This document shows positions 6,609 to 19,793 of a stretch of DNA of 20,738 bases, piece by piece. The DNA comes from a virus: positions 1 through 20,738 of the IMG/VR virus record IMGVR_UViG_3300025407_000157; one strand, written 5' to 3'. The notes beneath the pieces are model-generated. The model had not been told where the DNA came from, ran no database searches, and worked only from the letters and a program-made list of their open reading frames with translations. Position numbers and translations under genes: made by a program. Within the stretch, counting starts at the first letter, position 1, and each line of letters opens with the position of its first letter.

Positions 6609-9600
6609 ATGCCAAGTTTTTTAGATTTTAATTCCACAAAAAGTTTTAGAGATAAGATATTAGGAAGAACTTTACAACAACCTAATGGACCTCAAACTTT
6701 TAGTAGTACAGGATATCCTGAACAAAATCTAAGTGATATTCCTAATATATTTTTAGGTAATGTAGATACAAATAGAACGAGTGATTTAAAAGGAATACAA
6801 TCTTTAAATTTATATAAACCAGATACTTTTTTTATTGAAGAGAATATTGATACTTTACCAAGAAGAGCGAACTTAAGTTTATATCCATATTTTACACCAG
6901 GTGATTATAATTTATTTGGTATTATGAATACTAATAATTATGATACTGAATCTGAATTATTCAAATTTGCCGCATATAATATTAAAAATAACACAAGTGG
7001 TCCTGTTTATGCAAGAATAGCTCAGAATGTTGAAAAAACAACATTAGGTAGAGTAAGAATTTTAGATGCTATAAATGGTAATTCAGCTACCGCATTAAAT
7101 ATTATAACAGGTAGAGAACCATTAGTAGAATCTAATTATTCTATTACAATTAACCCAACAAATCCATCAGGAGTACCTACAGATTTTTTATCTGCGGTTG
7201 AAGGTGAATCAACACCATATAGTATTATACCTGGTGATTATTTAAGTAATCCACAAAATCCATTAAATTACAATTCACAAAATCCGTTACAATTAGGTAC
7301 ATTATTAAATGATGCCACGGGTGCAATTGCATCTATGGTTGGAATACAAGGAAAACCAAAAATTAGTCCAAGACCTTCTGACATAATGATTCAGTACATG
7401 GGTCCAGGTCAGAAAAATAGATTATTTGATTTATTAAGTTATTCAAGATATTCACCAAATTACACATTATTATCTGAGGTTAATAACGTACTACAAAATG
7501 GATTACAAATTAAATCCCCAATACAAGTCCCTGGTAACACTTACATAGGTGATGATAGATATTTTGATGTAAAATACTCTATGAGTGATTTTTGGGATAG
7601 AACAGTACGAGGAAACTACTATACAAGTTTAATGTTTGATAGTGGTTCTGCAGAATTATTTCATAAAAGTAAAAATTATTCAGAAGGTGGTCCTATAGGT
7701 GGTAATTTAACATGGTATAGTAAAGGTTCAAAAAACCCTTTAGGAGCTAACAATAATGAATCAGGTAGTACTCTTAATATTCTTGAAAGTTCTCTATCAA
7801 CAAAATTTGATTATAGAAGAGATTCTATTTTAGGTAATACACAAGAAATATTAAACTCATTACCTTCTGATGGAGGTATTTCTCGTTCTCATGTTGCGAA
7901 TGCTATTGACCAAACAAGTAGAATATTCCAAGAAGGTGATGTAAAAATATCAAGAGGTTCCGCGATAAAATATGTGGATAAATACGGTCAAGAATCTGGT
8001 GTTGAATATTGTAGAGTATGGACTAAAGATAGACCATACCTTCATTTAGATGATACTATGAAAAGAACTGACATTATCAGAAAATATGATGGTAGTGTTT
8101 TAGGTGGTAAAGGAAGACCATGGAATATGAGTATTGCACCAATGTCGAATGGTAAAAAATCATTTGACAATTCAAGTAATATTGTTGATGGATACCCATA
8201 TGGAGGAGGATTTTATGCAAAAAAATATATGTTTTCAATTGAGAATTTAGCATGGAAAACATCTAATAGAGATGGGTTTAGAGTATCGGATTTACCTTAT
8301 TGTGAAAGAGGACCTAATGGTGGTAGAGTTATGTGGTTCCCACCATATGATTTAAAAGTTAGTGAACAAAACTCTGCGAGATGGGAAGAAAATGAATTTT
8401 TAGGTAGACCAGAACCAATTTATACATATAAAAATGCATCAAGATCAGGACAAATATCATTTAAAGTGGTAGTTGACCATCCGAGTATTTTAAATTTATT
8501 AACAAGAGAAGTTTTTGGTAAAATGTCAGATGATGTTGCAGAAAATTATATTAATGCTTTTTTTGCTGGATGTGAAGAATTAGATTTTTATAGTTTAATA
8601 CAAACATATACAACATTGGACCAAAATGATGTTTCTTTAATACAAGCATATTTGAATGCAGGTACACCTAAAGAAACAATTAAAAAATACAAATATACTT
8701 CTACAGATACTACAACTGAAGTTCCTAATACTGCTCCTGATCAAACAAATCAAATTCCAAATTTTAATACTGAATTATATTTCATGAATGATTTTCCAAA
8801 ATCATCTGGAGGAGTAAGCGGACAAACAAAATCGTATTATTCTGATTTAGGTACAACATATTATCAATCTAAAAATAATTACTTAACACAATTAAGAAAT
8901 GATTTAAATAAATTGATACCAGACACATCAGTTAATGCACAAAAAGATAGAGAAACTATTTTTGGAAAAGCACCAATAGTACCTGCAACAAGTGGACAAA
9001 CAATTGATGCTAAAGTTACAGATTTAAGTAACGCATTTGAAAAACTTAATACTAATATAAATGATTATAAAAATTATTTATCAACTTTAAAAACCGCTAT
9101 AAGTAATAATACATTACAAGATGTACAAATTTGGTTATTTACTTCTACTTCTGAAGTAGCTGAAGATAATTATAATTTCTATTTGGGAGTTAGGAGAGGA
9201 TATTCTGTTTTAACTGAAATTTTTAAAAGTATTACCGCAGATGGTGCACAACCACCAACTTTAGTTTGGAAAACCGATGAACAATTAAAACAATATTCAT
9301 CAAAAAGTATAATAGAATTTAAAGATACCGTACAAGAATATACATTTGATAAATTTGGTTACAAAGGTAATACTGGTAAATTAACTGTTTATTTTGGTAC
9401 AAAAGGAGAAAATGCAAAATTAAATAATGGTGGAGGAGGAAGTGAATTAAATTTAGATTGTCATACAAAAATCTACACAAATTATGGTTTAAAAAATTAT
9501 GCACCGGTTGCCTTTTATTGTAGACAATCTAATCTTGTTATAACAACAACAAAAAGAGAACAACAACCTACAAAAAATAAAACAGTAAAAATACCTAAAT

Positions 9601-11312
9601 TAACTGTTAGTCCAGATGATACACAAGTTTTTAATAAGAAACCAAGTATTGATGTAATGAAAAGAATTATAATGAAAACATTAACAGAATGTTTTTATTT
9701 TAAACAATTAGAAAATAATTCACCAATAGTTTTTGATTCTCTTAAAGAAAAATTAAAATATTTTCATCCAGGGTTTCACTCAACAACACCAGAAGGATTG
9801 AATAGTCGTTTAACATTTTTATTACAATGTTTAAGACCTGGAGATACAATACCTATTAAAGGTTTATCGGATGATGCGGATTTAAATTCAAGAAATACTT
9901 CATTTGGACCACCTCCTGTTTGTGTAGTTAGAATTGGCGATTTTTACCATTCTAAAATAATCATCAGAGATGTTGGGATAACATATGACGATGGACCATG
10001 GGATATGAATCCTGAAGGAATAGGATACCAACCAATGATTGCCAATGTAACTTTACAAGTAAGTTTCATTGGAGGACAAGGTTTAGAAAAACCAGTTGAA
10101 AGATTACAAAACGCTTTATCATCTAATTTCTTTGCCAATACTGAAATTTATGATGAAAGGTCCGAATCTACAACAACAACAATAAATGGTAAAACAACAG
10201 ATCAATTTACAAAAGAATTTTTAGAACAACTTACTAAAAAACCTGAATATCAATTAATTACCGATTTGAAGGACCAGTCTGTAAATGTAGTACAAGGAAA
10301 ATATCTTGGTACGATTTCGGGTACTAATATGGATTATACAAATCTTGTTAATTTAATTTTTAGTACTGTTGGTAATTACACAAATACATATCAATCAACA
10401 TATAATAAATTATTGACTACATATGGTATTGAAATTACAAGTACATTATTAAACCCAAAATATAGAACTATCAAGAATATTACTATCCAAAATAGTCCAA
10501 CAAGTACTTTAACATATTCGATGTTAGGTTTACAAAATACTGATAATGATTTTCCCACAATTGTAAGGAAAATAAAAACAATAATGGATTATTCTTTAAC
10601 AAATACAAACATAACATCATTTATTTTTGAATTTTTTGATATTTCAGATACTAAATCTTCCATTACTGAAAATATAATAAAAAGTTCAATACAAAATTTA
10701 GTTTCAACTTTAATTGATGGAATAGTAGATACTAAATCAATAAAAGACTTAGAGTCATCAAGAAATGATATTATAAAAAATATAGATGAAGTTAATTTCT
10801 TAGTAAAATATGAACATGATGCACAAATATCGGGAACAACATACACTCAATTACCTTTAACAAGTTTTAGTGGTTCTGATTTTTATAGTCAATATTCTAA
10901 TGTTTTAACATATATGAATAATTCTAATACACCATTTACTCAAGATTTAACTTATGATTTATTATCAACTAATCAATACACAACTGAACAAATAAAGAGT
11001 ATATTATCAGTATTATTATCGGGAAGTAAAGATGAATTAAAACAAATCATAAAAAATGATGTATTCAGTGCTGCCGATATTGAGAATATGAATGCGATTA
11101 TTGATTTATTTGTGAAAACACCACCACAAAAAGTTTTTAATTTAGATAAATTTCCTATTAGAAAAAATGATAAAGCAATAACGTATCAATCAGGTACTTC
11201 TTCAGAAATAGATGTTAAGGATACAACACAAAAAGATAATTTGAATAATATATTCATAAATAAAAAAGGTATTTCCGGTACCACAAATGTATTAAATTTC
11301 TATAAACCATAA
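6609..11312 (+). CDS. Very large baseplate/tail-tube junction structural protein
   Basis: This 1567-residue protein lies between the tape-measure candidate and two baseplate genes, so a baseplate or tube-initiator role is likely. The clearest conserved-looking segment is residues ~1100-1182: PPVCVVRIGDFYHSKIII, then GPWDMNPEGIGYQPMIANVT, then VSFIGGQGLEKPVERLQNAL and FFANTEIYD. It resembles the region in T4-type baseplate-tube proteins (gp48/gp54 class) that fixes the first tube ring, but I cannot assign it to either gene. Residues 280-310 (RPSDIMIQYMGPGQKNRLFDLL) form another compact block. After residue 1190 the protein turns Asn/Thr/Ile-rich and helical, of unknown role. It has no signal peptide or membrane segment. 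The stop (TAA) is one base before the next ATG, so the genes are probably translationally coupled. Confidence 0.6.
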   Translation: MPSFLDFNSTKSFRDKILGRTLQQPNGPQTFSSTGYPEQNLSDIPNIFLGNVDTNRTSDLKGIQSLNLYKPDTFFIEENIDTLPRRANLSLYPYFTPGDYNLFGIMNTNNYDTESELFKFAAYNIKNNTSGPVYARIAQNVEKTTLGRVRILDAINGNSATALNIITGREPLVESNYSITINPTNPSGVPTDFLSAVEGESTPYSIIPGDYLSNPQNPLNYNSQNPLQLGTLLNDATGAIASMVGIQGKPKISPRPSDIMIQYMGPGQKNRLFDLLSYSRYSPNYTLLSEVNNVLQNGLQIKSPIQVPGNTYIGDDRYFDVKYSMSDFWDRTVRGNYYTSLMFDSGSAELFHKSKNYSEGGPIGGNLTWYSKGSKNPLGANNNESGSTLNILESSLSTKFDYRRDSILGNTQEILNSLPSDGGISRSHVANAIDQTSRIFQEGDVKISRGSAIKYVDKYGQESGVEYCRVWTKDRPYLHLDDTMKRTDIIRKYDGSVLGGKGRPWNMSIAPMSNGKKSFDNSSNIVDGYPYGGGFYAKKYMFSIENLAWKTSNRDGFRVSDLPYCERGPNGGRVMWFPPYDLKVSEQNSARWEENEFLGRPEPIYTYKNASRSGQISFKVVVDHPSILNLLTREVFGKMSDDVAENYINAFFAGCEELDFYSLIQTYTTLDQNDVSLIQAYLNAGTPKETIKKYKYTSTDTTTEVPNTAPDQTNQIPNFNTELYFMNDFPKSSGGVSGQTKSYYSDLGTTYYQSKNNYLTQLRNDLNKLIPDTSVNAQKDRETIFGKAPIVPATSGQTIDAKVTDLSNAFEKLNTNINDYKNYLSTLKTAISNNTLQDVQIWLFTSTSEVAEDNYNFYLGVRRGYSVLTEIFKSITADGAQPPTLVWKTDEQLKQYSSKSIIEFKDTVQEYTFDKFGYKGNTGKLTVYFGTKGENAKLNNGGGGSELNLDCHTKIYTNYGLKNYAPVAFYCRQSNLVITTTKREQQPTKNKTVKIPKLTVSPDDTQVFNKKPSIDVMKRIIMKTLTECFYFKQLENNSPIVFDSLKEKLKYFHPGFHSTTPEGLNSRLTFLLQCLRPGDTIPIKGLSDDADLNSRNTSFGPPPVCVVRIGDFYHSKIIIRDVGITYDDGPWDMNPEGIGYQPMIANVTLQVSFIGGQGLEKPVERLQNALSSNFFANTEIYDERSESTTTTINGKTTDQFTKEFLEQLTKKPEYQLITDLKDQSVNVVQGKYLGTISGTNMDYTNLVNLIFSTVGNYTNTYQSTYNKLLTTYGIEITSTLLNPKYRTIKNITIQNSPTSTLTYSMLGLQNTDNDFPTIVRKIKTIMDYSLTNTNITSFIFEFFDISDTKSSITENIIKSSIQNLVSTLIDGIVDTKSIKDLESSRNDIIKNIDEVNFLVKYEHDAQISGTTYTQLPLTSFSGSDFYSQYSNVLTYMNNSNTPFTQDLTYDLLSTNQYTTEQIKSILSVLLSGSKDELKQIIKNDVFSAADIENMNAIIDLFVKTPPQKVFNLDKFPIRKNDKAITYQSGTSSEIDVKDTTQKDNLNNIFINKKGISGTTNVLNFYKP

Positions 11313-11313
11313 A

Positions 11314-11640
11314 ATGAGTAGACAATATTACGATAGATATCAATTTTTTGAAAATGATGGTAACTTCCTAATAGTACCTGGAATTGAATTACCTATTAAA
11401 GGAACTGACAAATATATTCAATATAAGAGAGGTAAAGATAGAATGGATATGTTATCACAAGAGTATTATGGTTCACCTACTTTTGGTTGGTTAATTATGT
11501 TAGCTAATCCATTAGCTGGTAGTATTGAATTTTTAATACCCGATAATTTTTACATAAGAATACCATTTCCTTTATTAGATTCTTTACAAGATTATAAAAA
11601 TGGTGTAGAATTGTATAAATTATATTATGGCGAACAATAA
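11314..11640 (+). CDS. Small baseplate protein with LysM-like fold (gp53 / tail protein X class)
   Basis: This 108-residue protein is a likely baseplate wedge or hub adaptor. Features in order: aromatic N-terminus (YYDRYQFFENDGNF); IELPIKGTDKYIQYKRGKDR; then the signature DRMDMLSQEYYGSPTFGWLI plus MLANPL; then FLIPDNFYIRIPFPLLD. The pattern of a start-up turn, helix with YYG, W-helix ending in Asn-Pro and an I/L-P-x2-hydrophobic-R-I-P strand is shared by LysM-like baseplate proteins, including T4 gp53 (196 residues, so this one is shorter) and P2/Mu-type tail protein X. Its C-terminus overlaps the next gene by 14 bases, which indicates coupled translation. Family class is fairly sure; equivalence to gp53 is inference. 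Confidence 0.66.
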   Translation: MSRQYYDRYQFFENDGNFLIVPGIELPIKGTDKYIQYKRGKDRMDMLSQEYYGSPTFGWLIMLANPLAGSIEFLIPDNFYIRIPFPLLDSLQDYKNGVELYKLYYGEQ

Positions 11641-14600
11641 CTTAAATAAGACTGAAAACATACTTGTAAAAGTTGACCAAAACAATGTCATTCTTATCGA
11701 CCCCAATAGTGTGGTTGATGGGGGTAATGTTTCTATGAGAAATGTTGAACAGGAAAATTTGGTTATGTATGTAAACTTGGAGGCTGATTTAGTACCAAGA
11801 ACAGTATTAAACATAAATGGTGGACAAACAACAACAGGAAATCTACAATCAATTGCTAAAGGAACTCTTAATATTTTAAGAAACGCTAACGGTAGTGATT
11901 TAGATACAAGTTGGACAAATTCGTTTGATGAAAAAAATCAAATTAAAACAGATATAAATGGTAAAAGTACCACTTTGTTTGATAACTCTTCAGATACTTC
12001 AGCACAAACTTTTGGTATCGAAAGTATAAACATTGTAATCAAAGGTGTTAATTTTATTCCACAGGTAAATATAAATTTTGTGGATGTTAGAGGTAAGACA
12101 CTTTTTGATTCACCTAAAAATTCACCGTATGCTGCTTTCTTTCATTTACCTTGGCCTATATTTTATTTAACAGTAAAAGGTTATTATGGTAAGGCTATTA
12201 GATATAGATTACATTTAACTAAGTTCAATTCAAAGTATAATGGTTCTAATGGTAATTTTGAAATTGCAACAACTTTTGTAGGTTCCACATATGCGTTCTT
12301 AAATGATATTCCTTTAACAGGTATATTAAACGCACCTTATATGTATGCTATAGAAACTGAAAAAAATACCAAACAAAATGGAAACACTAACGAAACAACA
12401 AAGATAGTTTCAAAAACAAGTAAAGGTTATACTTTATTAAAATCTGTTTATAGTGATTATGTGTCAAAAGGTTTGTTACCCAAAAGTTTTTTACAAAATC
12501 CAAAAACATTAAGAGAAATTATTAGTGTTGCAAAAACTTTGGATAAAATATTAGAAAGAGAAATTTTAGATCAAAAAGTTGATTTCCATATATTTGATGG
12601 GGTAAAAGAATTTGAAAAATTAGTACAAAATTTTTTAGCTTCAATCGATGCTTGGGCTCAAAAATACTTGAGTAATAATTTTGCAACAGTTAATAATACA
12701 AAATTAACATATTTGGCACCAACGGAAAAGAATTTAAATACAAACATAATTGGTCCAAAAAATAGTAAATCATTGGAATCTATTTTAAATGAATATACTA
12801 ATAAATTAAATAAAACTACAATTTTTACTGAACATAAATTAAATGCTTCTGGAGTCGATTTTAAAGGACAAACATTTAATTTTTTAAACAACATACAAAA
12901 TATTAATTTTTATGTGGATCAAGTAGGAGGTAATATAGTTGTAAAATATGAATTATTAAGAAATCAAATTTTAGATATTGAAAGGGCATTTGTAACTCAA
13001 AGAAACAAATTACAAACATTTGTGGAGGATGAAATGAATAAGATTATAAGAGACCCATCTAAAGGAATAGGATTCAATCCCACAATCAGAAATATTTTTG
13101 GAGTAATAATGGCAAATGCAGATGTGTATATTAAACTTTTAAAAGATGTACACATAAGGGCGTTTGATGTTGCAGAAAAAAGAAAATCATTATTAAAAGG
13201 TTATGCAACAGATGAAACAATTGGAGACCCTATATATCCTTGGCCTCAAATTAAAAAAATTGATTCTAACGGTAAACAAAAAGTATTAGCATATCCAGGT
13301 GACCCTGATTTACAAGTTGCATTACAATCAACAGACCCTAATTTATGGCCCGAAGTTGACTTCGTAGAAAACTATCATGGTATTGGTACAAAAAGAGTTG
13401 ATACTACGGCAGAAAAAGAAGGTGGAGTTGGTTTAATAAATTACGTTTTTGAGAACAATACTCCCAATGTTGATATATTAAATATTGCTAATGGATTTGA
13501 TGTTGTAAATGCAGTTCCTTATGGAGATAAAACAATATCAAATATTTTATATGAAATATTTGAAAGAGCAAGATATGCTACTTTATTAGATACGTTTCAA
13601 CCAAAATCAATTCAAGAATTGGCCACAAATGAATTTGATAATATTTCAAAATTATTCAAAGAGGATAGTGACATTATAGACATTTTAAGAACCGTAACCA
13701 ATAGAACTAAATTTGATGAATATTTGTTATCGTTTTCACCATTCGAAAGATATCCATACTTACAAGATAAATTACCAACAATAACCTATCTAAAAACATT
13801 AGAAAACTATAATTTTAATTTAGAACAATACGGACAAACTGTAAAATCATTAAAAGATAGTTCTTATTCTGGATTAAATCAAAATCTAATAAGTTATGTT
13901 TCAGAAGATTATAGAAAATCAATTTATCCATTTAACTCAAATTTATATTTAAATTATCTAAATAAAAAACAATTCAATTCTGACGATTTGAATATAAAAA
14001 ATTTCTTGAATATTAATACAAAAGAAGGTTTTATAAGTTCAAAGTTAGATTCTAAAATGTGGGTTAAGGATGGTTACGATACTAATTTATTTAGTCAAAA
14101 TTTAAACATATTAAATAATGGTTCGGTTAATATTTTAAACACACCATATTTTCATAAACAATTATTTACAGATTTTACTAAGACTAATTCTTCAGGGAAA
14201 TTTGTTGGTTCGGCATATCTTTTATTAAATTCATTACCATTTTTAGATTTAGAAGATACTATAGTTTCATATACGGGTCCAAATGGTAATATATTGGTTA
14301 ATCCAAATAAAGCAAGAATGTCTTCTTTATTTAGAGAAGTAAACGCATCACATTATATTCCATATCATTTAATACTTAAATGGGGTTCAATTTATAATAG
14401 ATATAAAACTTATATTAATAATGGTGTTGATATATTGAATGGTTTTTTATTAAGTGATAATACAACAACACCTATAGATGGACAAACATTTTTTAACGAT
14501 AATCAAACGGGAAGTACATATGAAACATTTGTAACACCATTCAAACAAGTTACATATAGTAATAAAGATTCAGTTGGATTACATCCTTTTTATGATACCA

Positions 14601-17419
14601 TTTTTAATCAAATTGTTAATGGTTATGGTAACTATAGTGCTTCTTTAGGTAACACCGATTATTTTGATTCTATCACAAATGGAACAACAAATATAACCGA
14701 AAAATCGGTTGGTGACGGTATTACATATTTTACTAATTATGTTAACAACTCCACTATTGTATCGACAGATACTTTTTATACTTTACTACCTTCCGTAGGA
14801 GATAACTCAATAACTAATTTAACAAATAAAACTGTTAATAGTTTTGGATTCAATCAAAAAGACCAATCGGGATATAGAATTATATGGCAAGATGAATTAC
14901 TTACAACAGAATTTAGTGGAAAAACGTTTGCGGATTATTCACAATATAATAGAAGTTATGTTAGTACCTTACCAAAAGTAAATGATAATCAATATAGTAT
15001 AAGTTCTAATTATAGAAAAGTTATGGATTTAATTGCAACATTTAGTCCATCAATTTTAGATGAATTTGAAAATTGTTTTTTAGATTTTGCAACAGAAAAA
15101 ATTAACGATGAAATACCATATTATAAATTTGAACCATATTCAGGTACATCAAGTACACATATAGTGACTTATCAAAAATTTCAAGATTTATTAAAAGATA
15201 TTGTTACAGTTAAAATACAACCAACAGATCCGACAGATAAAAATTCATTAATAAATGTCTTAAAAACACAACAAGTTAATAATTTAAAAACAATTACTAA
15301 TAAGATTTTAAGTCATGATAATTTAATTAAATTTACATTAGGAAATACTAAAGAAATATCTCCATATATTTGGTACGGATTTATTAATTCAGATAATAAT
15401 ACAACCACATTTAAGTATAATTCATATAACGAATCAACTCAATCAAGTAATATATCGTTTATTAAATTATATGTGGGTGAAGACATCGATGGAAATTATT
15501 TAAAATTCTTCTCAACTAACGATGTTGAATTGAGTGAGGAGAATGTTTTATTATTCAGACCATTAATTCAAATTTTTGCGGGAGGTTTAAATGATGGTAA
15601 GTTTACAGATAAGAAAGGATTCCAAACTTATCTTAAAACTATAACTGATAGTGCAGACACAAGATTAGGTATATATTTAAATCAATTAATACCAAAATTA
15701 CCATCATTACCACAAACAAACGCAAACCTTAATCAGTTAACGGTATTCAGTGGTTATCAAGATACGAATTTAAAACTTGAAGAATATAACTACTTTAAAA
15801 TTTTTAATGATAAATGGGTTGCAGGTAATTCATTAGGATACAGGTCATTAATGGAAGAATTTTTATTTTTAGATAAGGCAAATAAAGATATTGGTGATGT
15901 TGCTTACCTAAGTTTAGATAAGTTATTATCATTAGAAGATCCTAAAAATGATAAGGCGGATTTATATAGTGTAATTTCTATGTTAATTCAAGGTACTGGT
16001 TTTGATATGAGGGCGTTACCAGCGTATGTCAATTTCTATGGTACTAATTTTTCAACAAAATCAAGAACAACACCATCCAAAAAAGTTGCACAAAATTTAT
16101 TTGGTACTTTTTTAGATGTTGACTATCAAGAATCCTCACCTAAAATTATTATACAATATACAGGACCAACTTCTAAACAATTAGAATTATCAGATATTGC
16201 ACAACAAGAAAATAAATTTAAAAACGATAGTGGTAATTTATTCCAAAATGCACAAAGTCCATTAGTTTATACATTAGACAATAATACTAATTTAGGTGAT
16301 TTATACAAATCCAATAAAGTTATTGCATTTGAAGTAAGTGCGGGAGATGAAAATCAATCAATGTTTAAAGGTATAACACTTGACCAATCATCACAAAGAG
16401 AGACTTCAGAATCAATGCAAGCTCTTGAAAATATGGGTAGATCTGAATCTGGTTCAGGTGTTGGACAAATGGATACAAGTTTATTCGACACTTATAGATT
16501 AAGGTCATATACATGTGACGTTACTATGATGGGTAATGTTATGATTCAACCCACAATGTATTTCTATCTTAAAAACATTCCAATGTTTAGAGGTTCTTAT
16601 TGGATTACAGATGTAACACATAGTATTAGACAAGGAAATATAACAACAACATTTAAAGGTACAAGAATACCTTATCAATCTTTACCTAATCCTAAAGATT
16701 CATTTTATTCAAGTTTCAGAGTATTGTTTGATAAATTATCAAAAGCAGCAACAGCAAAAGTTAAAGATGAGACAACAATATTAAACGGACCAACAGCTAA
16801 AGAATCTATATTACAAACTGATAATGGTTCATTCTTGATTGATACAGGAACAACGGTTACTAAAGGTGAAACAATTCAATTAACTTCAGGTGAAAATGAA
16901 TTTGGAGTTTCTTGGGGTGGATATAATAGTGAAAAATATATTGTACAAGTTAAAAATAATAAACTTAAAGGAGATAAAGTTTATTTCAGAGCGGTTGCTT
17001 GTGTTATGGGTGGTAAAAGTTATAATATTGATGATACAATTGCAATGTCAGTTTTGGCAATGGTTAAAAATAAAGTACCGGTTTCAAATGACCCTAATCA
17101 TACGAATATATTATGGTATGATATTAAGAATGATAGAAGTCATTATTTTTATGCAATAAAATTTGATTTAATTGGAGTAACGGCAGACCATATTATTTCT
17201 GCTAAAACCACCTTTACAAATCCTAACACAGGAAAATCAATATTAGTAAATCCAATTGACCAATCAGCACAAACTATGGATTCAAGAAATTTAAGAGGTC
17301 CAATTCATAAAGGACCTGGTGTAGTTGGATTTGGTATTGGTTTATCACCAAAATTAATGGGTGATTTAGGTCTTGTTGATGGTGATGTTGTATATTTTAC
17401 AATGGAGAAAGGATATTAA
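11627..17419 (+). CDS. Giant baseplate hub protein with possible C-terminal double-psi beta-barrel
   Basis: At 1930 residues this is the longest gene in the window; T4 gp27 has 391. Residues ~133-243 (INIVIKGVNFIPQVNINFVD, FFHLPWPIFYLTVKGYYGKA, RYRLHLTKFNSKYNGSNG, ILNAPYM) look like a tube-fold structural domain. Residues ~1622-1689 match phage hub proteins: YRLRSYTCDVTMMGNVMIQP, MYFYLKNIPMFRGSYWITDV, THSIRQGNITTTFKGTRIP. The last ~70 residues (FTNPNTGKSILVNPID ... GFGIGLSPKLMGDLGL-VDGDVVYF) resemble the second half of RlpA/expansin-type double-psi barrels (NxxNGKSxxVxVxD ... IDLSxxxAxxLGxxxG). The usual Asp before LS is Gly here, so binding rather than catalysis is more likely. The middle ~1300 residues are Asn/Thr/Ile-rich and unassigned. 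The ATG overlaps the previous gene by 14 bases. Confidence 0.62.
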   Translation: MANNNLNKTENILVKVDQNNVILIDPNSVVDGGNVSMRNVEQENLVMYVNLEADLVPRTVLNINGGQTTTGNLQSIAKGTLNILRNANGSDLDTSWTNSFDEKNQIKTDINGKSTTLFDNSSDTSAQTFGIESINIVIKGVNFIPQVNINFVDVRGKTLFDSPKNSPYAAFFHLPWPIFYLTVKGYYGKAIRYRLHLTKFNSKYNGSNGNFEIATTFVGSTYAFLNDIPLTGILNAPYMYAIETEKNTKQNGNTNETTKIVSKTSKGYTLLKSVYSDYVSKGLLPKSFLQNPKTLREIISVAKTLDKILEREILDQKVDFHIFDGVKEFEKLVQNFLASIDAWAQKYLSNNFATVNNTKLTYLAPTEKNLNTNIIGPKNSKSLESILNEYTNKLNKTTIFTEHKLNASGVDFKGQTFNFLNNIQNINFYVDQVGGNIVVKYELLRNQILDIERAFVTQRNKLQTFVEDEMNKIIRDPSKGIGFNPTIRNIFGVIMANADVYIKLLKDVHIRAFDVAEKRKSLLKGYATDETIGDPIYPWPQIKKIDSNGKQKVLAYPGDPDLQVALQSTDPNLWPEVDFVENYHGIGTKRVDTTAEKEGGVGLINYVFENNTPNVDILNIANGFDVVNAVPYGDKTISNILYEIFERARYATLLDTFQPKSIQELATNEFDNISKLFKEDSDIIDILRTVTNRTKFDEYLLSFSPFERYPYLQDKLPTITYLKTLENYNFNLEQYGQTVKSLKDSSYSGLNQNLISYVSEDYRKSIYPFNSNLYLNYLNKKQFNSDDLNIKNFLNINTKEGFISSKLDSKMWVKDGYDTNLFSQNLNILNNGSVNILNTPYFHKQLFTDFTKTNSSGKFVGSAYLLLNSLPFLDLEDTIVSYTGPNGNILVNPNKARMSSLFREVNASHYIPYHLILKWGSIYNRYKTYINNGVDILNGFLLSDNTTTPIDGQTFFNDNQTGSTYETFVTPFKQVTYSNKDSVGLHPFYDTIFNQIVNGYGNYSASLGNTDYFDSITNGTTNITEKSVGDGITYFTNYVNNSTIVSTDTFYTLLPSVGDNSITNLTNKTVNSFGFNQKDQSGYRIIWQDELLTTEFSGKTFADYSQYNRSYVSTLPKVNDNQYSISSNYRKVMDLIATFSPSILDEFENCFLDFATEKINDEIPYYKFEPYSGTSSTHIVTYQKFQDLLKDIVTVKIQPTDPTDKNSLINVLKTQQVNNLKTITNKILSHDNLIKFTLGNTKEISPYIWYGFINSDNNTTTFKYNSYNESTQSSNISFIKLYVGEDIDGNYLKFFSTNDVELSEENVLLFRPLIQIFAGGLNDGKFTDKKGFQTYLKTITDSADTRLGIYLNQLIPKLPSLPQTNANLNQLTVFSGYQDTNLKLEEYNYFKIFNDKWVAGNSLGYRSLMEEFLFLDKANKDIGDVAYLSLDKLLSLEDPKNDKADLYSVISMLIQGTGFDMRALPAYVNFYGTNFSTKSRTTPSKKVAQNLFGTFLDVDYQESSPKIIIQYTGPTSKQLELSDIAQQENKFKNDSGNLFQNAQSPLVYTLDNNTNLGDLYKSNKVIAFEVSAGDENQSMFKGITLDQSSQRETSESMQALENMGRSESGSGVGQMDTSLFDTYRLRSYTCDVTMMGNVMIQPTMYFYLKNIPMFRGSYWITDVTHSIRQGNITTTFKGTRIPYQSLPNPKDSFYSSFRVLFDKLSKAATAKVKDETTILNGPTAKESILQTDNGSFLIDTGTTVTKGETIQLTSGENEFGVSWGGYNSEKYIVQVKNNKLKGDKVYFRAVACVMGGKSYNIDDTIAMSVLAMVKNKVPVSNDPNHTNILWYDIKNDRSHYFYAIKFDLIGVTADHIISAKTTFTNPNTGKSILVNPIDQSAQTMDSRNLRGPIHKGPGVVGFGIGLSPKLMGDLGLVDGDVVYFTMEKGY

Positions 17420-17658: not shown

Positions 17659-18315
17659 ATGTTAGAACAAAAATTACAAGAAGAATTAAATCGTTACAAA
17701 GCCATTAACACATATGGTAAAACGATGATAATGGAACAAGCAGCACCTCCTCCACCGGCACCTGAAGATGCACCGGCGCCAGACGCGGGAGCACCTGCAC
17801 CTGACGCAGGAACTCCACCGGTAGACCCAACAGCAGGAGCTGCACCAACAGACCCAAGTGCACCAGCACCTGCGGGAGCTTTACCTGAATCTGATACACA
17901 AGAATTAGATATTACTGATTTAGTTGATATGACAAAAAGTATCAAAAAAGATTTGGAATCACATACACAAGACAATAGTTCTGTTATGAATAAAATGGAT
18001 GATGTTTTTACTAAACTTAATGATTTAGAATTAAAACTTGGTGAAATGAATCAAGTTATTTCTAAGATTGATGAGTTAGGTGCTAAGATTGAACAAATGA
18101 AACCAGAAACTCCTGTTGAAAAATTGGAAATGCGTTCATTAGATTCATATCCATTTAATCAAAATCCTAAGGAGTTTTTCAATCACAAACAAGATGAGAT
18201 GAGAAAAACAGGTAAAAACGAGTATGTTTTAACTAAAGATGATGTAACAAATTACGATTCACAAATAAACAAGTCATTTAATCCTCAGGAAGAAGAAGAT
18301 GAATATAGGTTCTAA
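17659..18315 (+). CDS. Pro/Ala-rich linker and coiled-coil protein, unknown function
   Basis: This 218-residue protein has three parts. Residues 1-27 form a charged helix. Residues 28-75 are almost only Pro, Ala, Asp, Gly and Thr with PAPDAGAPAPDAG-type repeats, an extended flexible linker. Residues ~82-147 form a predicted coiled coil with heptad-spaced Leu/Ile/Val/Met (DLVDMTKSIKKDLE, MNKMDDVFTKLNDLELKLGE, QVISKIDELGAKIEQM). The acidic C-terminus contains SYPFNQNPKEFF and ends in EEEDEYRF. It suits a multimeric virion or assembly scaffold component, but no family was recognised. The linker DNA is markedly richer in G and C than the rest of the window. Its end overlaps the next gene by 17 bases, so the two are likely translationally coupled. 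Confidence 0.72.
   Translation: MLEQKLQEELNRYKAINTYGKTMIMEQAAPPPPAPEDAPAPDAGAPAPDAGTPPVDPTAGAAPTDPSAPAPAGALPESDTQELDITDLVDMTKSIKKDLESHTQDNSSVMNKMDDVFTKLNDLELKLGEMNQVISKIDELGAKIEQMKPETPVEKLEMRSLDSYPFNQNPKEFFNHKQDEMRKTGKNEYVLTKDDVTNYDSQINKSFNPQEEEDEYRF
17740..17883 (+). repeat. GC-rich low-complexity Pro/Ala/Asp codon tract
   Basis: This tract encodes the PAPDAG-like linker of the coiled-coil protein. It is locally GC-rich in an AT-rich window because Pro, Ala, Gly and Asp codons dominate. It creates open frames on the opposite strand that are not genes. Confidence 0.75.
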
Positions 18316-18670
18316 AATAAAGTTCTTAATAGAACTTCAAAATCAAACTAAAATTAATCATTGGCAAACTAAAAGTTATGCGAGACATAAAGCATTTGAC
18401 AAACTTTTTGATGGTTTAATTGATTTGACGGATACTTTCGCAGAAGCGGCAATGGGAAAATATGGTAGATTTAAATTAGAAGAAGATGATAAAACAATCA
18501 ATCTTGTCAATTTAGGTGAATTGGATTTAAAAGAAATGTTAGAAACTTCTAAAGATGCTTTAATTCAATGGACCGAAGAATTTGACCCTAAAGATACTGA
18601 TTTAATGAATATCCGTGATGAAATTTTGGGATTACTTAATAAAATAACATATCTATTAACATTAGAATAA
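18299..18670 (+). CDS. Dps/ferritin-like four-helix protein
   Basis: This 123-residue all-helical protein has the Dps ferroxidase-type pattern: INHWQTKSYARHKAFDKLFD then GLIDLTDTFAEAAMG. His21, His30, Asp34, Asp45 and Glu49 line up with the H-H-D-D-E iron ligands of Dps. The spacings His30-Asp34 (4), Asp34-Asp45 (11) and Asp45-Glu49 (4) are as in Dps; only the first interval is three residues shorter (9 instead of 12). Two more helices follow (DLKEMLETSKDALIQWTEEF; MNIRDEILGLLNKITYLLTL). It is shorter than typical Dps (about 150-170). Dps stores iron and protects DNA from oxidation; in phages the role is unknown and it could be purely structural. The start overlaps the preceding gene by 17 bases, so it is read from the same late transcript. 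Confidence 0.66.
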   Translation: MNIGSKIKFLIELQNQTKINHWQTKSYARHKAFDKLFDGLIDLTDTFAEAAMGKYGRFKLEEDDKTINLVNLGELDLKEMLETSKDALIQWTEEFDPKDTDLMNIRDEILGLLNKITYLLTLE

Positions 18671-18687
18671 AAAAAACATAAATAAAA

Positions 18688-19737
18688 ATGCAATCAGGTT
18701 CAGCAGCAATAATAGCTTCAAACGCAACTACAGGTTCTTTATCGTATATTGATACATTAGTATCAGGTGCAACGGCTCAAGGTCTATATCAAATTACAGT
18801 AGATAGTCGTTACATGAATATGACAATGGCGAGTACATTAATAAATGTATATGGATATAATGTGTTCCAACAAAATAGTTACAATGGTACAGATAATGAT
18901 TATGTAATTAGTTGGTTACCGGCACCGACCCCTACACCAACACCAAGTAATACTCCAACAAATACACCAACACCTACTCCAAGTGTTACATCAACACCTG
19001 CAGCACCAAGTCCAACACCAACACATACGGCAACGTCTACAATGACACCAACACCAACATTAACACCGAGTTCAACGCCATCAGCTCACGTTGCAGGTTT
19101 GGATTTTACAATAGAATGGTGGATGAAAGTTACAAACTGGACATCACCAACATATCACCCAAGACCATATTCACTTGGTACAGCTCCAGCACCTAACGCA
19201 GTATCGATAGAAGGTGGAGGTGACCATATATATTGGTGGACAGGTTCAGGATATCAAGTGGATTTTGCTGGATTAGGTCTACAAAATAGTACTTGGTATC
19301 ATTTTGCGGTTACAAGAAACAATGGTCAGTTAGCAATATATGTAAACGGACAAAGAAAGGCAACATCAACATATAATAACGCTATACCATCAGGAGGTAA
19401 TGTTTTAATGATTGGTGCGGAACCTAACGGAGCGAGTGCTCAAAGTAATGTAAATGGTTTAATGACAAACTATAGATGGAATACAAGTGTTAAATACACA
19501 GGAACATCATTCACAGTTCCAACATCACCATTAACGTCTGATGCAAATACTAAGTTCTTAATGTTGGCAACTGATAGTGGTCATTTAACAACAGATTCAT
19601 CTACTTACAATAGAACTATTACAAACAACGGAGCAACTTGGAGTTCAGATTCTCCATTTGTAAGTGGAGGTGGTAGTGTGAATTTTGCAGGAACAGGATA
19701 CTTTACAGTTCCGGCTTCTTCAGATTGGGATTTATAA
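18688..19737 (+). CDS. Virion/adhesin-type protein: N-terminal domain, Pro-Thr linker, LamG-like lectin domain
   Basis: This 349-residue protein may bind cell-surface or environmental glycans. Residues 1-77 form a small domain (AQGLYQITVDSRYMNMTMAS ... GYNVFQQN ... DYVISW) that probably attaches it to the virion. Residues 78-133 are a PTPTPSNTPTNTPTPTPS-like linker. Residues 136 onward are a concanavalin A/LamG-like fold: GLDFTIEWWMKV, WYHFAVTRNNGQLAIYVNGQ, LMIGAEPNG, SNVNGLMTNYRW, FLMLATDSG. The last ~24 residues (GGSVNFAGTGYFTVPASSDW plus DL) are what normally precedes the DFTIEWW strand in this family, so the domain appears circularly permuted, or a second repeat is cut short. It ends in tandem stops (TAA TAA) ahead of a terminator. 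There is no signal peptide. The lectin class is sure; the ligand is unknown. Confidence 0.74.
   Translation: MQSGSAAIIASNATTGSLSYIDTLVSGATAQGLYQITVDSRYMNMTMASTLINVYGYNVFQQNSYNGTDNDYVISWLPAPTPTPTPSNTPTNTPTPTPSVTSTPAAPSPTPTHTATSTMTPTPTLTPSSTPSAHVAGLDFTIEWWMKVTNWTSPTYHPRPYSLGTAPAPNAVSIEGGGDHIYWWTGSGYQVDFAGLGLQNSTWYHFAVTRNNGQLAIYVNGQRKATSTYNNAIPSGGNVLMIGAEPNGASAQSNVNGLMTNYRWNTSVKYTGTSFTVPTSPLTSDANTKFLMLATDSGHLTTDSSTYNRTITNNGATWSSDSPFVSGGGSVNFAGTGYFTVPASSDWDL
18919..19086 (+). repeat. Pro-Thr-Ser linker coding repeats
   Basis: Imperfect tandem ACACCAACACC-like units encode a linker of about 56 residues made mostly of Pro, Thr and Ser. Such a tract is prone to slippage and length variation between related phages. 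Confidence 0.8.
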
Positions 19738-19764
19738 TAAAAAAAAATACTTTTAAAATAATTG

Positions 19765-19793
19765 AACCCAGATTTTATAGTCTGGGTTTTTTT
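19765..19793 (+). terminator. Rho-independent terminator after the lectin-type gene
   Basis: A perfect 8-bp stem AACCCAGA (19765-19772) / TCTGGGTT (19781-19788) with an 8-base loop is followed by a T-run ending at 19793. It closes the late structural transcript before the gp32-like gene. Confidence 0.9.

What the first reader, a model, noticed from the sequence alone, without database searches (positions are those of the whole stretch)
18299..18670. Mini Dps/ferritin-like protein in a tail/late operon
His21, His30, Asp34, Asp45 and Glu49 reproduce the Dps H-H-D-D-E ligand set, with all spacings but the first identical, in a 123-residue protein coupled to structural genes. A phage Dps could protect packaged or replicating DNA from iron-driven damage, capture host iron, or serve as an iron-bearing virion part (compare the proposed use of iron in phage tails to exploit siderophore receptors).
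Basis: partly seen in the sequence, partly recalled or inferred. Interest (0 to 1): 0.68.

Follow-up and report, generated by a model that had tools for sequence, protein, structure and literature searches.

The report
Phage mini-Dps-like protein (DUF5856)
A small phage protein from a tail-gene operon belongs to a widespread but functionally unassigned viral family (it includes phage T4's RI.-1) that folds like the bacterial iron-storage protein Dps and keeps its four core metal-binding residues, and published work finds relatives inside purified phage particles, so it may be an iron-handling virion component.

Summary
ORF 18299-18670 encodes 123 aa with H21, H30, D34, D45 and E49; spacings 4, 11 and 4 equal those of E. 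coli Dps, and only the first differs (9 instead of 12).

The protein belongs to Pfam DUF5856 / phrog_858, whose best-known member is T4 RI.-1. It is not in Pfam Ferritin (PF00210). Evidence for a divergent, shortened Dps-type protein:
- The family profile against all PDB sequences has only Dps/NapA proteins in its top 11.
- HHalign against a diverse Dps profile gives 89% (shuffled controls at most 1.1%).
- An AlphaFold model (pLDDT 95.5) retrieves Dps throughout its top 50.
- In a diverse 21-member alignment only H21, H30, D45 and E49 are invariant. The fifth residue, D34, is Gly in 79% of relatives.
- RB49 RI.-1 restores the exact Dps spacing.

H30 and D45/E49 lie about 22-28 Å apart on one helix, so a shared site must be between subunits, as in Dps.

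Overlap with an upstream coiled-coil gene is exactly 17 nt in 140 of 146 relatives. Ackermannviridae homologs (LIMEstone1 ORF78, Sajous1 gp217) were found in virions by published mass spectrometry; gp217 was already called "ferritin". Iron binding, dodecamer formation and virion location are untested for this phage.

The parts
18299..18670 (+). CDS, 123 aa, DUF5856 / phrog_858 protein with Dps-like fold
   Evidence: PF19174 E 2.4e-22, 80.2 bits against a cut-off of 34.6; phrog_858 E 4.9e-19; AF2 model pLDDT 95.5; Foldseek top 50 all Dps
18359..18361 (+). codon of His21 (Dps H51 equivalent, end of helix A)
   Evidence: invariant in 162 of 162 relatives and in the diverse set
18386..18388 (+). 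codon of His30 (Dps H63 equivalent, start of helix B)
   Evidence: invariant
18398..18400 (+). codon of Asp34 (Dps D67 equivalent; variable in the family)
   Evidence: Gly in 128 of 162 relatives
18431..18433 (+). codon of Asp45 (Dps D78 equivalent, helix B)
   Evidence: invariant
18443..18445 (+). codon of Glu49 (Dps E82 equivalent, helix B)
   Evidence: invariant
17659..18315 (+). upstream coupled gene, 218 aa, Pro/Ala-rich segment plus coiled coil, conserved C-terminal half
   Evidence: same neighbour in 147 loci; overlap of 17 nt with the DUF5856 start in 140 of 146
18299..18315 (+). 17-nt overlap of the two reading frames (likely translational coupling)
18688..19737 (+). next gene of the same unit: 349 aa with Pro/Thr repeat linker and Laminin_G_3 domain
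   Evidence: PF13385 E 1e-14; phrog_3545 E 9.8e-21 and phrog_13163, baseplate wedge, E 9.3e-13
19764..19789 (+). intrinsic terminator-like stem-loop closing the unit
   Evidence: 11-pair stem plus T run; consensus scan only
11627..17419 (+). 1930-aa protein upstream, probable baseplate component
   Evidence: position among tail genes; same family found upstream in 119 loci; no PHROG match

Best explanation
The gene encodes a mini-Dps-like protein of the viral family DUF5856. Shown here by computation: a Dps-type four-helix bundle, and invariant His-His at the helix A/B turn with invariant Asp-Glu further along helix B. Inferred: two subunits pair antiparallel, as in Dps, so that H21/H30 of one and D45/E49 of the other bind metal (most likely iron) at the dimer interface, and the dimers assemble into a small cage or stay smaller. 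Inferred: it is made late with the tail proteins, coupled to an upstream coiled-coil protein, and either becomes part of the virion (as its Ackermannviridae homologs do) or acts in the cell at assembly time. There it oxidises or sequesters Fe(II) and so limits peroxide/iron damage to phage DNA and proteins.
For: DUF5856 80.2 bits. Family profile against 177,635 PDB sequences: the top 11 are all Dps/NapA, E 8e-4 to 9e-3, aligned through both His and the Asp-Glu with a 3-residue gap. HHalign DUF5856 against diverse Dps: 89.1%, E 2.2e-6, score 41.5; 40 column-shuffled controls reach at most 1.1% and score 16.8, reversed control 0.3%. NCBIfam Dps model E 0.0011 on the single window protein, below cut-off. 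AF2 pLDDT 95.5, pTM 0.88; Foldseek PDB top 50 all Dps, probability 0.97-1.00; VIA Z 13.3 over 123 residues to MsDps2. Only H21, H30, D45 and E49 are invariant in the diverse set; the same four are invariant in true Dps. RB49 RI.-1 has HFGVTGPGSYAKH, the 12-residue Dps spacing. Helix B spans residues 27-55, so H30 to D45/E49 is about 22-28 A along the helix and cannot be one intra-subunit site. Virion mass spectrometry of homologs: LIMEstone1 ORF78, 3 peptides, 28.2% coverage (identity of the ORF); Sajous1 gp217, 10 spectra (identity). Conserved 17-nt coupling.
Against: No match to PF00210. Foldseek E-values are modest (best 0.035), and VIA Z 13 is near what helical bundles can reach by chance, as the tool warns. 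The aligned sequence region is helices A-B only (55 columns). D34 is lost in most relatives. No dimer model, metal or activity data. In T4 the homolog lies in the rI lysis-inhibition operon and its overexpression only slightly delays lysis-inhibition collapse, which does not point to iron. The virion evidence is from other phages at about 26% identity.
Confidence: 0.7

Rival explanations
1. Virion iron carrier: the protein is built into the tail and presents iron (or another metal) that helps adsorption to iron-uptake receptors (the 'ferrojan horse').
For: The window gene sits in a tail/baseplate unit. Sajous1 gp217, a DUF5856 protein, was found in CsCl-purified virions beside a tail completion protein, and the authors proposed this mechanism.
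Against: The same authors saw equal plating on TonB- and FeoB-deficient Salmonella. The neighbouring Sajous1 and LIMEstone1 proteins start like T4 internal head proteins, which suggests head rather than tail. Members in other lineages lie beside nucleotide-metabolism, methyltransferase or lysis genes, not tail genes.
Confidence: 0.12
2. Internal head protein: packaged with the DNA and perhaps ejected, protecting packaged or incoming DNA from iron and peroxide.
For: In Ackermannviridae the gene follows virion proteins whose N-termini (MKPFIEYFKEQ, MKGFPDFLKEA) resemble the N-termini of T4 ipII/ipIII (MKTYQEFIAEA); in 141 ORFs of the fetched pieces the pattern hit only these and the T4 internal proteins. 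Several RI.-1 proteins start MKFSDF, MQTFNEV or MPSFTEF. Homologs are found in virions.
Against: The pattern was drawn up after seeing the sequences. gp217 and the window protein themselves lack such an N-terminus. Low peptide counts could be carry-over from lysate. A podovirus homolog follows the portal gene, but that is position only.
Confidence: 0.2
3. Regulatory or accessory protein of lysis timing that kept the Dps fold but not iron chemistry, as suggested for T4 RI.-1.
For: T4, RB49 and GAP161 homologs directly follow rI. Plasmid overexpression of rI.-1 slightly delayed lysis-inhibition collapse in T4 (Golec et al. 2010, as described in PMC6832632).
Against: Kuttervirus, podovirus and window-lineage members have no rI neighbour, and Klebsiella phage RaK2 has an RI.-1 homolog but no T holin or RI. 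Invariance of exactly the metal ligands argues for retained metal binding.
Confidence: 0.12
4. A four-helix protein with chance resemblance to Dps; the conserved His/Asp/Glu serve folding or another ligand such as Zn.
For: Helical bundles match each other easily; Foldseek E-values are above 0.01.
Against: Sequence-only searches rank Dps above all other PDB proteins, controls fail, and the exact Dps spacing recurs in RB49.
Confidence: 0.06

Closest known systems
DUF5856 (PF19174) / phrog_858, including T4 RI.-1
   Same: Full-length match above the curated cut-off; same four invariant residues and about 120 aa; T4 RI.-1 keeps all five ligands.
   Different: Only 26-35% identity to the Straboviridae and Ackermannviridae members; different operon (tail genes rather than rI); lacks the N-terminal extension of RI.-1.
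Dps (DNA protection during starvation; E. coli Dps, H. pylori NapA, B. subtilis MrgA)
   Same: Four-helix bundle over nearly the whole chain; HH...D..E ligand pattern with the 15- and 19-residue offsets of D and E from the second His identical.
   Different: Shorter (123 against 150-167 aa): A-B loop 3 residues shorter, no N-terminal basic tail, BC region reduced to a 4-residue helix; below Pfam Ferritin and NCBIfam Dps thresholds.
Phage-encoded classical Dps (Gratiaviridae, crAss-like phages, Lactobacillus phages)
   Same: Dps fold in phages.
   Different: Those are recognised by Dps/ferritin models; the window virus and ten related records have no PF00210 match.
Sajous1 gp217 / LIMEstone1 ORF78 (Ackermannviridae virion proteins)
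   Same: DUF5856 members with H-H-D-E; gp217 was assigned to ferritin by Phyre2 in 2024.
   Different: Different phage family, about 26% identity; the fifth position is Gly.

Membership tests
DUF5856 (PF19174) | Score above the curated Pfam gathering cut-off | tested here: met
   80.2 bits against 34.6, profile positions 1-94 of 94
DUF5856 (PF19174) | Shared conserved positions (H, H, D, E; Asp in the last helix) | tested here: met
phrog_858 | Significant full-length profile match | tested here: met
   E 4.9e-19, positions 19-128 of 129
Ferritin/Dps Pfam family PF00210 | Match to PF00210 above cut-off | tested here: not met
   no PF00210 hit with max E 10; none in the whole window record
Dps (NCBIfam NF006975) | Score above the equivalog cut-off | tested here: not met
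   19.1 bits against 114; E 0.0011
Dps | Dps-type four-helix subunit fold | tested here: met
   AF2 model, Foldseek top 50 all Dps with TMq 0.58-0.78; prediction only
Dps | Ferroxidase ligands H-H (one subunit) and D-E (partner) with Dps spacing | tested here: met
   residues and D/E offsets conserved and invariant; the inter-subunit geometry itself was not modelled
Dps | Fifth ligand Asp (D67 in E. coli) | tested here: inconclusive
   present in the window protein, Gly in 79% of relatives; this column also varies in true Dps
Dps | Dodecameric cage | not testable with these tools
   no multimer prediction available
Dps | BC helix at the dimer interface | tested here: inconclusive
   only a short helix 62-65 in the model
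Dps | Fe(II) oxidation / iron core; DNA protection | not testable with these tools
   needs purified protein

The most novel reading that the evidence does not exclude
DUF5856, including T4 RI.-1, is a virus-specific branch of the Dps lineage whose dimeric metal site is loaded into virions (with the DNA or in the tail) across unrelated phage families; that is, phage particles of this group carry an enzyme-like iron-handling protein into or onto the host.
Probability: 0.25. Interest if true: 0.7.

Novelty: new member of a known kind. Interest (0 to 1): 0.45.

Why it matters
More than a thousand sequenced phages (1392 records, T4 included) carry a DUF5856 gene that is annotated as hypothetical or as 'starvation-inducible transcriptional regulator'. 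Recognising it as a shortened Dps with a conserved inter-subunit metal site gives a testable biochemical function to T4 rI.-1, a gene known since the early T4 maps, and joins it to virion proteins of Ackermannviridae. It also makes the question whether phage particles carry iron directly testable in laboratory phages by deletion, virion metal analysis and two point mutations.

Tried and rejected
Genome-contig scan with the family alignment: no cellular relatives; in 398 Pseudomonadota genomes one weak member only, so a host-derived Dps gene is unlikely. HHalign against a single E. coli Dps sequence gave only 11.8% because the template had no depth; repeated with a diverse Dps set. A homology link between the window's coupled upstream protein and the Sajous1 operon proteins gp214-216 was not found. 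T4 late-promoter motif TATAAATA is no more frequent than chance in the window, and all four hits are on the minus strand. A 'second spacing' of 10 or 12 in the automatic survey came from the pattern catching an earlier His; only RB49 truly has 12. RB49-like spacing was read from the alignment. A dimer could not be folded: the tool takes single chains and unchanged sequences. Golec et al. 2010 and the Ferrojan Horse paper are not held, so they are cited through papers that describe them.

Full report
What is there. Checked against E. coli Dps fetched from MG1655, spacings are 9, 4, 11, 4 against 12, 4, 11, 4. Shuffled versions of the same protein give the five-residue pattern 11 times in 200,000.

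Family. Pfam assigns DUF5856 (PF19174, E 2.4e-22); PHROGs assigns phrog_858, 'starvation-inducible transcriptional regulator' (E 4.9e-19), a name taken from Dps. The phage collection holds 1392 records with a match, mostly T4-like and ViI-like phages, all under 60% identity. T4's member is RI.-1. IMG/VR holds hundreds of closer relatives. Cellular genomes almost lack it: 1 of 398 Pseudomonadota genomes. A structure search of viral models adds giant viruses of eukaryotes (a Pithovirus and Fadolivirus protein at 32-34% identity) and crAss-like phage proteins named DpsA or DNA-binding.

Is it related to Dps? Four independent lines agree. First, a profile of 80 members searched against all PDB sequences puts Dps/NapA proteins in the first eleven places (E 8e-4 to 9e-3), aligned through HW, the second His, Asp and Glu with a three-residue gap in the A-B loop. 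Second, HHalign of a diverse DUF5856 alignment against a diverse Dps alignment gives 89.1% (E 2.2e-6), while 40 column-shuffled and one reversed Dps control give at most 1.1%. Third, the AlphaFold2 model is confident (pLDDT 95.5; helices 3-23, 27-55, 62-65, 77-94, 100-120), and Foldseek's fifty best PDB matches are all Dps; VIA-align gives Z 13.3 over all 123 residues to M. smegmatis Dps2, with bacterioferritins and YciE close behind. On its own this would be weak, because helical bundles reach such Z by chance. Fourth, RB49 RI.-1 has HFGVTGPGSYAKH, restoring the 12-residue Dps spacing, so the one spacing that differs is a loop indel inside the family.

The metal site. Across 162 distinct relatives H21, H30, D45 and E49 never change, while D34 is Gly in 79%. 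Some of those loci were found with a search pattern containing HWQTKSYA, so the stricter test is the 21-member alignment that adds members found by tblastn or profile search without it: there the only invariant columns are those four. The same four are invariant in the Dps alignment, where the D34 column also varies. H30, D45 and E49 lie on one helix, 15 and 19 residues apart (about 22 and 28 A), so they cannot share a metal within a subunit; in Dps the His pair and the Asp-Glu pair come from opposite subunits of a two-fold dimer. That arrangement is inferred here, not modelled. Other nearly invariant positions (T24, R57, D107, Y118) have no assigned role.

Setting. Upstream lie tail sheath, tube, baseplate hub and very large baseplate proteins. 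The gene starts 17 nt inside the preceding gene, which encodes a Pro/Ala-rich coiled-coil protein; this neighbour occurs in 147 loci and the 17-nt overlap in 140 of 146, a strong sign of translational coupling. Downstream is a Laminin-G-like protein, then a terminator-like stem-loop at 19764-19789, then a gp32-like SSB, followed in relatives by UvsX-like and exonuclease genes. So in this lineage the gene belongs to the tail transcription unit. In other lineages it sits in the rI operon, after a portal gene, or near nucleotide kinases, methyltransferases and NUDIX genes, so the tail setting is not general.

Virion evidence from the literature. LIMEstone1 ORF078 is a DUF5856 protein annotated as a confirmed structural protein with a putative late promoter directly upstream; its mass spectrometry gave 3 unique peptides and 28.21% coverage, and the authors state that all twelve unknown structural proteins have structural counterparts in phage ViI (PMC3296691). 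Sajous1 gp217, also DUF5856, gave 10 spectra from CsCl-purified virions, was matched to ferritin by Phyre2 and was proposed as part of a 'ferrojan horse' entry system; TonB- and FeoB-deficient Salmonella were infected as well as wild type (PMC10892097). A lead of mine: Sajous1 gp215 and gp216 begin like the T4 internal head proteins (MKPFIEYFKEQ, MKGFPDFLKEA against MKTYQEFIAEA), which would favour the head interior over the tail. The pattern was chosen after looking, and gp217 and the window protein do not carry it.

Mechanism. Most likely: a Dps-like dimer (perhaps a cage) that binds and oxidises iron at the subunit interface and is made with, and possibly incorporated into, the virion. Shown here: family, fold prediction, ligand invariance, coupling. 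Shown by others for homologs: presence in virion preparations. Inferred: dimer geometry, iron as the metal, protective role. Against DNA binding in the E. coli manner: the chain starts at helix A with no basic tail and the protein is acidic (pI 4.9).

Novelty. The protein is a new member of a known family of unassigned function; a ferritin assignment for one member is already in print. What is added here is the family-wide link to Dps, the demonstration that exactly the inter-subunit ligand set is invariant, its extension to T4 RI.-1, and the conserved coupling. I found no held paper linking RI.-1 or DUF5856 to Dps, but most subscription papers are not held.

Noticed in passing
window 17659-18315: Pro/Ala-rich plus coiled-coil protein with a conserved C-terminal half (EKLEMRSLDSYPFN..FF..KQ.EM...GKNEY.LTK) always preceding and overlapping the DUF5856 gene; no family match above chance. 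Likely functional partner.
   Followed up: partly
L245 (Sajous1) gp214-216 and L352 (LIMEstone1) ORF079-082: N-termini resemble the capsid targeting N-terminus of T4 internal proteins ipII/ipIII; these may be internal head proteins encoded next to the DUF5856 gene.
   Followed up: partly
L246:1507-1902 (-), RB49 rI.-1: Three-residue insertion gives the exact Dps H-x11-H spacing with a GP-containing loop, as in Dps.
   Followed up: yes
L331:1459-1815 (-): DUF5856-like ORF with all five ligands in a roughly 0.9 Mb bacterial genome (G230), the only one among 398 Pseudomonadota genomes; small-genome host, phage origin not determined.
   Followed up: partly
BFVD hits A0A481ZC29 (Pithovirus), A0A7D3V608 (Fadolivirus), M1HGL9: Giant eukaryotic viruses have close structural matches at 32-37% identity, so the family crosses from phages to giant viruses.
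   Followed up: no
BFVD hits A0A8S5MNG7 (713 aa, NUDIX hydrolase) and A0A6J7WPK9 (763 aa, prohead protease): Dps-like domain apparently fused to larger phage proteins.
   Followed up: no
window 18688-19737: Pro/Thr-repeat linker (PTPTPTPSNTPTNTPTPTPS) joined to a Laminin-G-like domain; probable fibre or adhesin of the baseplate.
   Followed up: partly
window 6609-11312 and 11627-17419: Very large (1567 and 1930 aa) proteins among the baseplate genes without any PHROG match.
   Followed up: no
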